64,000 bases of DNA from Candidatus Nitrosocosmicus agrestis (GTDB lineage: Archaea; Thermoproteota; Nitrososphaeria; Nitrososphaerales; Nitrososphaeraceae). The notes beneath the pieces were generated by a model that was not told the DNA's origin, did not search any database, and worked only from the letters and a program-made list of their open reading frames with translations. How positions within the stretch are numbered: position 1 is the stretch's first letter; the number at the start of each line of letters is the position of its first letter. The translations under genes were made by a program, and so were the position numbers. Positions 17,109 through 47,428 of the stretch are shown one piece after another. The DNA is taken from assembly GCF_008389435.1 (NCBI RefSeq), contig NZ_VUYS01000001.1:124001-188000 (forward strand), in the 5' to 3' direction.

Positions 17109-18482
17109 ATGAATGGCTATAGCAATAAGACCAACGTAAAACCTTTGCATATTGGTTTTGATGACACTGATTCGGTAAATGGTAGATGTACTACCCATTT
17201 ATCATATCTAATAACAAAAACACTTTTAGAAAGATTTCAAGTCGAGTTTTTGGATTTACCCCTTTTAGTTCGACTAAATCCAAATGTTCCATTAAAAACA
17301 AGAGGCAACGGAGCTGTTTGTTTAAGGATCAGAGGAAGAAGTCAAACGCATCATGAAAGAATTAGAGCAGAAATAGCACAGATGATAGAAAACTACTCAG
17401 AAATAGGCAACGGAGCAAATCCAGGAATAGTGTTTTACGAAAATGACACCATAAGTAATGATTTGATTCAATTTAGTGAAAATGCAATGGATTCCATTCT
17501 CAGCAAACAATTGGCCATAAAAATAGCCAAAAACAATAATATAGAATTTATAGGTTTTGGAAAAGAGTATGGGCTTGTAGGAGCCCTCGCAGCCGTAGGG
17601 TGTACGTTGAATTCTGATCACACATTTGAAACAATCGCATACAGAAGTGAAGAAAATTTAGGTACACATAGGGATACAGATTGGCTCAGAGTAAAAAAAT
17701 TAAGCGAAGAAACATATCCATATACCTATAACAATTTTGACCAAAAAAATTTTAGAGTATTGATCACTCCGCATGGCCCGGATCCTGTATTCTGCGGCAT
17801 CAGGGGAGAAGATCCTCTACTCACGTCCTATTTTCTGAAGAATTTGTGTATTAAAGAGCAGTTAGATGGATATATGATATTTAGAACAAATCAAGGTACA
17901 AATTTACATCTGACAAGGGAAAAAAGTGTGCAAGAAATCATGCCTTTTATGTCAGGAGTTATCAATTGCAAAGTAATCTCAACTCCATTGACAATCAAGG
18001 GTGGCCATGTGATTTTTAAGATAAAAGACAAGTTTAACAAAGTATTACCAGTTGCAGTCTATCAACCTACAGGCCTGACCAAGCTTGTAAGTTTGTTACA
18101 TCCAGGAGATAGAATAGAAGTAGGATATGGCGTACATCTAAAATCAGAAAACCAGCTAACTCTTAACTTGGAATATTTGATCATTAAAGAACTTGTAAAG
18201 ACGTATGAGGAAAAAAATCCGATTTGTAATAAGTGTCTAAAAAATATGAAATCGGAAGGTATGAACAAGGGATATCAGTGTAAAAGATGCAAATCAAAAA
18301 ATAGAAGTAAAGAAAAGCTATACATAGAAACAGAAAGAAAAATTGGATGTGGTTTATACATTCCAGAACCAATTGCCCATCGTCATTTAACAAAACCCAT
18401 CAATAGGTATGGGATGGAAAAATCTTTTGACAGATTAGAGATTTTGAATATAATCAAAACCATAAAATGGATAGAAAAGTAG
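17109..18482 (+). CDS. tiaS: tRNA(Ile2) 2-agmatinylcytidine synthetase
   Basis: Adds agmatine to C34 of the AUA-decoding tRNA-Ile, an archaea-specific modification. The N-terminal kinase-like domain begins HIGFDDTDSVNGRCTTHLSY, the family's signature. RLNPNVPLKTRGNGAV and GLVGALAAVGCTL follow. An OB-fold region and a C-terminal zinc ribbon (ICNKCLKNM, YQCKRCKSKN) complete the 457 residues expected of the family. ATG start at 17109. The TAG stop (18480-18482) overlaps the 3' end of the convergent initiator-tRNA gene by three bases. Confidence 0.93.
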   Translation: MNGYSNKTNVKPLHIGFDDTDSVNGRCTTHLSYLITKTLLERFQVEFLDLPLLVRLNPNVPLKTRGNGAVCLRIRGRSQTHHERIRAEIAQMIENYSEIGNGANPGIVFYENDTISNDLIQFSENAMDSILSKQLAIKIAKNNNIEFIGFGKEYGLVGALAAVGCTLNSDHTFETIAYRSEENLGTHRDTDWLRVKKLSEETYPYTYNNFDQKNFRVLITPHGPDPVFCGIRGEDPLLTSYFLKNLCIKEQLDGYMIFRTNQGTNLHLTREKSVQEIMPFMSGVINCKVISTPLTIKGGHVIFKIKDKFNKVLPVAVYQPTGLTKLVSLLHPGDRIEVGYGVHLKSENQLTLNLEYLIIKELVKTYEEKNPICNKCLKNMKSEGMNKGYQCKRCKSKNRSKEKLYIETERKIGCGLYIPEPIAHRHLTKPINRYGMEKSFDRLEILNIIKTIKWIEK

Positions 18483-18500
18483 CGGGGGGTTGATTTGAAC

Positions 18501-18525
18501 ATACGGCTGGTTTATAAAACGCAGT
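18501..18525 (-). other. tRNA-Met intron 2 (T-stem, 25 nt)
   Basis: On the transcript, GCGG-TTA-CTG pairs with CAG-CCGT-ATG: a central helix GCGG/CCGT, bulges TTA and ATG, and an inner CTG/CAG helix. Cutting after the second base of each bulge restores the T stem GGTTG/CAACC exactly. Confidence 0.88.
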
Positions 18526-18560
18526 AACCGCTCTGCGGGTTATGAGCCCGCCGGGATAAC

Positions 18561-18577
18561 CTAGCCCCTAAAAAGGT
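18561..18577 (-). other. tRNA-Met intron 1 (D-loop, 17 nt)
   Basis: On the transcript, AGCC-AGA-CCT pairs with AGG-GGCT-AGG: a central helix AGCC/GGCT, bulges AGA and AGG, and an inner CCT/AGG helix with a TTTT loop. Excision joins GCCAG to GTTATCCC and restores the conserved D-loop GG. Confidence 0.88.
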
Positions 18578-18619
18578 CTGGCTTCCCCACCCCGCTAACT
18601 AATATTCTAATACAAGGAG

Positions 18620-18629
18620 TATATATACG
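18620..18629 (-). promoter_or_regulatory. TATA-like element for initiator tRNA
   Basis: On the minus strand CGTATATATACT lies about 24-33 bases upstream of the first tRNA base (18596), the expected place for a TATA box. The tRNA-Leu gene has a similar TAGAATAT-containing upstream region. Confidence 0.5.
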
Positions 18630-19102: not shown

Positions 19103-19147
19103 TGCGGGAGGTGGGATTTGAACCCACGGACCCCTAAGAGATGAGGT

Positions 19148-19163
19148 ATCTCAATCCCTGGTT
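19148..19163 (-). other. tRNA-Leu intron at 37/38 (16 nt)
   Basis: Central helix CTCA/TGAG with bulges GAA and ATA. Cutting GA|A and AT|A leaves the loop CTCAGAA next to CCTCA. The outer helix TGAGG/CCTCA exists only after the other intron is gone. Confidence 0.82.
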
Positions 19164-19170
19164 TCTGAGC

Positions 19171-19184
19171 ATCGTGTTTTTAAA
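19171..19184 (-). other. tRNA-Leu intron in anticodon stem at 30/31 (14 nt)
   Basis: Central helix CGTG/CACG with bulges AGT and ATG and a minimal TT/AA inner helix. Cutting AG|T and AT|G joins TGAG to G and builds the 5-bp anticodon stem. Confidence 0.82.
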
Positions 19185-19240
19185 CTCACGCCTTTGACCA
19201 GGCTTGGCAACTCCCGCATAAAATATTTTTGAAAAGTCCA

Positions 19241-45700: not shown

Positions 45701-47428
45701 CTAAGCCATAAAGTATCTTTGTGCGAGAGTCAACTCCTTTGCAGGGTCCACTGTTGCGATTTGTCCATCAATCTTCACTTCATATGTTTCAGGATCAACA
45801 GTTATTTCAGGAGTCTTGTCGTTCCACATCATATCTTTCTTACCTATACTTCTGCAATTCTTCACTGCTAGTGTTGTTTTCTCTAGACCTAATTTCTGAG
45901 GTACGCCTAATTCTATTGATTTCTTTGACATAAAGGTAAAAGAGGTTTTTTTGACAGCTCGACCCATGGCACCGAACATCGGCCTGTAATACACTGGCTC
46001 TGGTGTGGGTAAAGAAGCATTCGGGTCTCCCATTATAGACCATGCAATAAATCCACCTTTAAAGACCATTTTTGGTTTTGCTGCAAAGAAAGCAGTATTA
46101 TACATCACAATATCTGCATATTTGCCTACCTCAAGGGAACCCAGATAATCGGCTACACCATGTGTAATTGCTGGATTAATTGTGGTCTTCGCAATGTAGC
46201 GTTTTGCTCTAAGGTTATCATTATCCCCTTCTTCATCTTTTAGTTTTCCTTTCATTTTCTTCATTTTATCTGCTGTTTGCCATGCACGTATTACTACCTC
46301 TCCTATTCTACCCATTGCTTGGCTATCGGATGAATACATACTCAATACACCTTCATCATGCATGACATCTTCTGCTGCGATGGTTTCTGCTCTGATTCTT
46401 GAATCTGCGAATGCTACATCTTCTGCGACTGCGGGGTTAAGGTGGTGACAGAACATCAACATATCAAGGTGTTCATCAACTGTATTAACGGTGAATGGCC
46501 TTGTAGGATTGGTCGATGAAGGTAATACATTCTGTTCTGCTGCGATTGCTATAATATCTGGAGCATGTCCACCGCCTGCACCTTCTGTGTGGTAACTATG
46601 AACAACTCTCCCATCAATAGCATTAATTGTATCCTCCAAGTAGGCACATTCATTTATCGAATCTGTGTGGATTGCAACCTGAACATCTGTTAAATCTGCT
46701 GCACGCAGTGAAGCATCTAAAACTGCTGCGGTAGTTCCCCAGTCTTCATGATCCTTTAATCCACAAGCTCCGGCTTCGATCTGTTCCATTTGAGTTGCCA
46801 ACGAAGGATGAGAATCATTACCCTTTCCCAAAAATCCCCAGTTCATTGGAGTATCTTCTACCGATTCAAGCATTCTACTTATATTAAACGTACCTGGTGT
46901 ACAAGTAGTAGCATTGGTACCATCTGCAGGACCAGTACCACCGCCTATCATGTTACAAATACCGTTGCTGATTCCATCTATATATTGCTGTGGTGAAATC
47001 ATGTGAATGTGGGTATCAAAGTGTCCAGGAGTACATATTGTATGCTCACCTGCGGTTGCCTCGGTACAAGCTGAAACTATAAGGTTTCTATCCACATCAT
47101 CCATTACTAGAGGGTTTCCTGCTTTTCCAATACCTGCGATTTTACCATCCTTAATGCCAATATCACCTTTCACTATTCCTATGACAGGATCAATAACTAC
47201 GGCATTTGTGATAACAAAGTCCAAAGCACCAGCTGCATTGGTAACACCAGGCGTTTGGGCCAAACCATCTCTAAGTGTCTTACCACCACCGAATACACAT
47301 TCATCGCCGTGTGAAATCAAATCTTTTTCAATCTCAACAAAGAGATCAGTATCACCTAAGCGAATCTTGTCGCCTTTTGTGACTCCAAATAAATCCGTAT
47401 ATTGTTTTTTGGTTAATTTTAATACCAT
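45701..47428 (-). CDS. ureC: Urease alpha subunit
   Basis: Catalytic subunit that hydrolyses urea to ammonia and carbamate at a dinuclear nickel site. Full length at 575 residues. Visible features include the first nickel motif [15 protein letters not shown], the carbamylated lysine in [12 protein letters not shown], His ligands in [10 protein letters not shown] and [14 protein letters not shown], and the mobile-flap region [23 protein letters not shown] start, 16 bases after ureB. In AOA the released ammonia feeds AMO and the CO2 feeds the hydroxypropionate/hydroxybutyrate cycle. Confidence 0.98.

What the first reader, a model, noticed from the sequence alone, without database searches (positions are those of the whole stretch)
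18480..18596. Initiator tRNA split by two non-canonical BHB introns
The initiator tRNA-Met gene carries a 17-nt D-loop intron and a 25-nt T-stem intron. Both junctions fold as bulge-helix-bulge sites, with central helices AGCC/GGCT and GCGG/CCGT, and removing both gives exactly 75 bases with every stem paired. Introns in an initiator tRNA, at two sites outside the anticodon loop, are unusual even for thaumarchaea and crenarchaea.
Basis: partly seen in the sequence, partly recalled or inferred. Interest (0 to 1): 0.78.

Follow-up and report, generated by a model that had tools for sequence, protein, structure and literature searches.

The report
Initiator tRNA with two spliced introns

Summary
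Confirmed. On the minus strand (18596 to 18480) lies an initiator tRNA-Met gene with a 17-nt insert in the D-loop (18577-18561) and a 25-nt insert in the T-stem (18525-18501). A scan for strict bulge-helix-bulge (BHB) motifs that used no tRNA template found exactly this pair and no other that leaves a recognisable tRNA-Met. It is the only initiator tRNA in a 98.9%-complete genome. The genome belongs to the ammonia-oxidising genus Nitrosocosmicus. Both introns occur in all 15 genus genomes, and all 61 family genomes read carry at least one initiator intron. The mature 75-nt sequence is nearly invariant, while the BHB helices show many compensatory changes. The genome encodes both endonuclease subunits, the alpha one with the Lys-bearing loop tied to broad specificity, plus RtcB ligase. 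Non-canonical and multiple tRNA introns are an established archaeal phenomenon, with a published thaumarchaeal model in tRNAscan-SE 2.0. No splicing data could be examined. A side observation may deserve more interest: tiaS is a conserved neighbour.

The parts
18480..18596 (-). Initiator tRNA-Met(CAU) gene, 117-nt precursor, mature 75 nt (CCA not encoded)
   Evidence: A1:U72 pair, GGG/CCC anticodon stem, anticodon CAU; only such gene in the genome
18578..18596 (-). Exon 1: AGCGGGGTGGGGAAGCCAG
18561..18577 (-). D-loop intron (17 nt) between G18 and G19; BHB: central helix AGCC/GGCT, bulges AGA and AGG, inner helix CCT/AGG
18526..18560 (-). Exon 2: GTTATCCCGGCGGGCTCATAACCCGCAGAGCGGTT (anticodon arm included)
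18501..18525 (-). T-stem intron (25 nt) between positions 52 and 53; BHB: central helix GCGG/CCGT, bulges TTA and ATG, inner helix CTG/CAG
18480..18500 (-). Exon 3: GTTCAAATCAACCCCCCGCTA
18619..18627 (-). TATA-like box (TATATATA) about 27 nt upstream of the gene, conserved in all 15 genus members
   Evidence: promoter activity inferred, not shown
17109..18482 (+). tiaS (tRNA-Ile2 agmatinylcytidine synthetase), convergent neighbour whose TAG stop overlaps the tRNA 3' end by 3 nt

Best explanation
The gene is the sole, functional initiator tRNA-Met gene of a Nitrosocosmicus archaeon. It is transcribed from a TATA-type promoter as a 117-nt core precursor. At each insert the 5' exon pairs with the 3' end of the intron to form a 4-bp helix flanked by two 3-nt bulges. 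The (alpha-beta)2 tRNA-splicing endonuclease cuts after the second nucleotide of each bulge, RtcB joins the exons, and the 75-nt initiator tRNA results. The two introns are an inherited trait of the family Nitrososphaeraceae, with the D-loop intron also common elsewhere in the ammonia-oxidising archaea and with local losses and shifts of position. Shown: anatomy, single copy, conservation, covariation and presence of the enzymes. Inferred: transcription, cleavage, ligation and the exact ends in vivo.
For: Unique BHB solution leaving a tRNA-Met. ARAGORN detects the tRNA only when both inserts are removed. Both inserts in 15 of 15 genus genomes with near-identical mature sequence. The named Nitrosocosmicus loci L067, L106, L128 and L132 show the same two introns. 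Pairing across distinct sequences is 88% (D) and 97% (T) of cells, against at most 44% and 47% when the partner is slid by 1-3 nt. Double-sided changes number 79 and 40 cells, against shuffle maxima of 45 and 22. No other initiator gene: the pattern and the mature sequence find only this locus, and the two other CAT tRNAs have G1:C72 and other anticodon stems. Two endonuclease paralogues: alpha aligns to Aeropyrum alpha (3p1z, 3ajv) with catalytic His and the loop Lys44 equivalent, while beta lacks the His. RtcB present. Conserved TATA-like box.
Against: No RNA data were available. The outer helix of the T intron is only two weak pairs, so that site is a relaxed BHB by strict criteria. The genome has 43 contigs, so a hidden second copy cannot be excluded absolutely, though near-complete relatives held on one large contig (G006-G008) also show a single match.
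Confidence: 0.95

Rival explanations
1. A decayed or unexpressed pseudogene, with the real initiator tRNA elsewhere in the genome.
For: Standard tools miss the gene: ARAGORN and Rfam do not report it.
Against: No other initiator gene. Mature sequence nearly invariant in 61 genomes. Conserved TATA-like box.
Confidence: 0.01
2. The introns carry a retained function, such as protecting the 3' half of the tRNA gene from integrases or throttling initiator tRNA supply through a slow splicing step.
For: Retained in every genus member and most of the family, with helices kept by compensatory change.
Against: The D-loop intron is absent in genus g6 and some Nitrosopumilaceae, and the T intron changes position or is absent, so neither is essential. 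Compensatory change follows from the need to splice and does not need a further role. No attachment-site-like copy of the gene's 3' end in the genome.
Confidence: 0.08
3. Assembly or sequencing artefact.
For: None found.
Against: The same two inserts in 15 separately assembled genus genomes and in named contigs from different studies.
Confidence: 0.003

Closest known systems
Non-canonical BHB introns of thaumarchaeal tRNA genes (tRNAscan-SE 2.0 thaumarchaeal intron model, PMC8450103)
   Same: Short introns outside position 37/38, BHB junctions, same phylum; the paper reports 107 such introns in the Thaumarchaeota genomes it analysed
   Different: The text read does not name the initiator tRNA as a carrier; supplementary tables were not available, so it may already be listed there
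Multiple-intron tRNA genes of Thermoproteales (Pyrobaculum, Thermofilum; PMC3218864 and reviews)
   Same: Two or three introns per gene at scattered positions, (alpha-beta)2 endonuclease
   Different: Different high-level archaeal group, hyperthermophiles; here in an ammonia oxidiser and in the initiator
Split initiator tRNA of Nanoarchaeum equitans and permuted initiator tRNA of Thermofilum pendens (PMC3218864)
   Same: An initiator tRNA gene interrupted and restored through BHB cleavage
   Different: Those are trans-spliced or permuted; this is a contiguous gene with two cis introns away from the anticodon loop

Membership tests
Archaeal BHB tRNA introns | 4-bp central helix with a 3-nt bulge on each side at the exon-intron junctions | tested here: met
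   Both introns, and nearly all orthologues
Archaeal BHB tRNA introns | Removal restores a complete tRNA | tested here: met
   75-nt tRNA-Met(cat), all four stems paired
Archaeal BHB tRNA introns | Position outside 37/38 (non-canonical) | tested here: met
   18/19 and 52/53
Archaeal BHB tRNA introns | Host encodes an endonuclease of broad specificity ((alpha-beta)2 with specific loop, or epsilon2) and RtcB | tested here: met
   alpha and beta paralogues, loop Lys equivalent to Aeropyrum Lys44, RtcB; assembly into a heterotetramer inferred
Archaeal BHB tRNA introns | Excised in vivo | not testable with these tools
   No RNA data held
Archaeal initiator tRNA-Met | A1:U72, three G-C pairs in the anticodon stem next to the loop, CAU anticodon | tested here: met
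Split or permuted tRNA | Exons on separate or reordered transcripts | tested here: not met
   All exons contiguous and in order

The most novel reading that the evidence does not exclude
The pair of introns in the only initiator tRNA is kept by selection because splicing of this tRNA is a control point for translation initiation or a shield against integration, making it a functional feature of ammonia-oxidising archaea and not just an inherited relic.
Probability: 0.08. Interest if true: 0.6.

Novelty: new member of a known kind. Interest (0 to 1): 0.3.

Why it matters
An essential single-copy gene is invisible to ARAGORN and to Rfam's tRNA model at its cut-off, so genome annotation in this lineage may report the initiator tRNA as missing. 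The family also gives a compact natural series (two introns, one, or shifted positions at one orthologous gene) for studying gain, loss and movement of tRNA introns. Beyond that it is ordinary archaeal biology.

Tried and rejected
The gene as an oddity of one genome: rejected, family-wide. A second initiator gene: none. The best match outside this locus is an 18-nt stretch with no tRNA context. Three-intron initiator genes in Bathyarchaeota loci (L073, L114, L146): inserts are plain by alignment, but the strict-BHB scan did not resolve their junctions, so no claim is made. T-loop inserts in genera g3 and g6: present, exact junctions not settled. Literature searches found no paper naming thaumarchaeal initiator introns, but subscription papers and supplements were not searchable. 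A DNA alignment call failed through a malformed reference and was replaced by the listing.

Full report
WHAT IS THERE. The reported segment holds, on the minus strand from 18596 down to 18480, a 117-nt gene that reads AGCGGGGTGGGGAAGCCAG-[ACCTTTTTAGGGGCTAG]-GTTATCCCGGCGGGCTCATAACCCGCAGAGCGGTT-[ACTGCGTTTTATAAACCAGCCGTAT]-GTTCAAATCAACCCCCCGCTA. The bracketed inserts are 17 and 25 nt, at window 18577-18561 and 18525-18501. Without them the product is 75 nt, ARAGORN names it tRNA-Met(cat), and all four stems pair. With either insert left in, ARAGORN finds nothing, and neither ARAGORN nor Rfam reports the gene in the window. The A1:U72 pair, the GGG/CCC anticodon stem and the CAU anticodon mark an archaeal initiator tRNA (established knowledge).

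IS IT MORE THAN CHANCE. Shuffling each insert reproduces both motifs in 2.5e-6 of 400,000 trials.

ONLY COPY. The anticodon-arm pattern and the spliced 75-nt sequence each find only this locus in the window's own genome (3.22 Mb, 43 contigs, 98.9% complete). The two other CAT-anticodon tRNAs begin with G and have different anticodon stems, so they are elongator Met and Ile2 (which is which was not settled).

WHO CARRIES IT. Loci from named Nitrosocosmicus assemblies (L067, L106, L128, L132) show the same two introns, and L067 and L132 appear to be the same sequences as genus members L049 and L041. In the genus all 15 genomes have both introns. Of 61 family genomes read, 49 have two initiator introns (D plus T-stem, or D plus T-loop). 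In genus g6 all 11 have a single T-stem or T-loop intron and no D-loop intron. One further locus is cut by its contig end. In family f2 of the same order, 13 of 17 sampled genomes have the D-loop intron alone and 4 have none. Genomes from other orders of the class are mostly intronless (16 of 17). A scan of named genomes also found many Nitrosopumilales and some Bathyarchaeota, Lokiarchaeota, Thermoplasmata and Micrarchaeota initiator genes with inserts in the D arm, but that scan was selective and truncated. The claim that such introns are unusual even for thaumarchaea is therefore wrong.

COVARIATION. Among 54 distinct D-intron and 49 distinct T-intron sequences, 88% and 97% of base-pair cells are standard pairs, against at most 44% and 47% when the partner is slid by 1-3 nt. 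Cells changed on both sides number 79 and 40, against shuffle maxima of 45 and 22. The best examples are the inner helices (C-G versus T-A; T-A versus C-G; G-C versus A-T) and the first central pair of the T intron (G-T, G-C, T-A). The sequences are related, so these numbers are not probabilities, but the direction is clear. The mature sequence meanwhile is almost constant (34 of the family genes identical to the window's).

HOW IT WORKS. The genome has two tRNA endonuclease paralogues. One aligns without gaps in the relevant region to the Aeropyrum pernix alpha subunit, keeping the catalytic His (H133 in 3ajv/3p1z) and the lysine corresponding to Lys44 of the Crenarchaea-specific loop, which PMC6379350 ties to cleavage of relaxed BHB motifs. 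The other lacks that His and fits the structural beta subunit. RtcB ligase is present. Thaumarchaea are described as having the alpha2-beta2 enzyme (PMC4090602; PMC3218864). A TATA-like box about 27 nt upstream is conserved in all 15 genus loci. Transcription, cleavage and ligation are inferred; no RNA data were available.

WHAT IS KNOWN. tRNAscan-SE 2.0 includes a BHB model built from thaumarchaeal introns and reports 107 non-canonical introns in that phylum (PMC8450103). Two- and three-intron tRNA genes are well known in Thermoproteales, and disrupted initiator tRNAs are known in Nanoarchaeum (split) and Thermofilum (permuted) (PMC3218864). I found no paper that names the thaumarchaeal initiator introns, but subscription papers and supplements were out of reach. 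The finding is a well-conserved member of a known kind.

SIDE OBSERVATION. The gene downstream, on the opposite strand, is tiaS, the enzyme that modifies the anticodon C34 of the other CAU tRNA, tRNA-Ile2. Its stop codon overlaps the tRNA's 3' end. tiaS lies next to the initiator gene in 15 of 15 genus loci, 26 of 30 family loci tested and most Nitrosopumilales loci. In several Bathyarchaeota loci it sits just upstream on the same strand. This supports orthology of the initiator loci, and the association itself may merit a look.

Noticed in passing
window 17109-18482 (+), with 18480-18596 (-): tiaS, which modifies C34 of tRNA-Ile2(CAU), is a conserved convergent neighbour of the initiator tRNA(CAU) gene across ammonia-oxidising archaea, and a same-strand upstream neighbour in several Bathyarchaeota loci (for example L066, L114, L146, L166). 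In the window its TAG stop overlaps the tRNA 3' end by 3 nt.
   Followed up: partly
window 19103-19217 (-): A second intron-bearing tRNA gene (Leu-like, 115 nt) about 500 nt upstream of the initiator gene, found by Rfam but not by ARAGORN.
   Followed up: no
L029 and L030 (same genome, outside the window): tRNA-Asn-like and tRNA-Ser-like genes with apparent inserts in the D-arm region (the Ser-like one apparently with a second insert), so the initiator is not the only gene in this genome with non-canonical introns.
   Followed up: no
L066, L073, L114, L119, L146, L166 (mostly Bathyarchaeota): Initiator tRNA genes that align with three inserts (D arm, variable region, T loop), 22-42 nt each; junctions not resolved by the strict BHB scan.
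   Followed up: partly
L056, L058, L059, L215, L216 (genus g6) versus L057, L060, L211-L214 (same genus): Within one genus the T-arm intron sits either in the T loop or in the T stem, and the neighbouring mature T-stem sequence differs with it, a possible natural case of intron replacement.
   Followed up: partly
window 46978-47275 (+): Rfam match to 5_ureB_sRNA (45.7 bits), probably only reflecting a urease gene.
   Followed up: no
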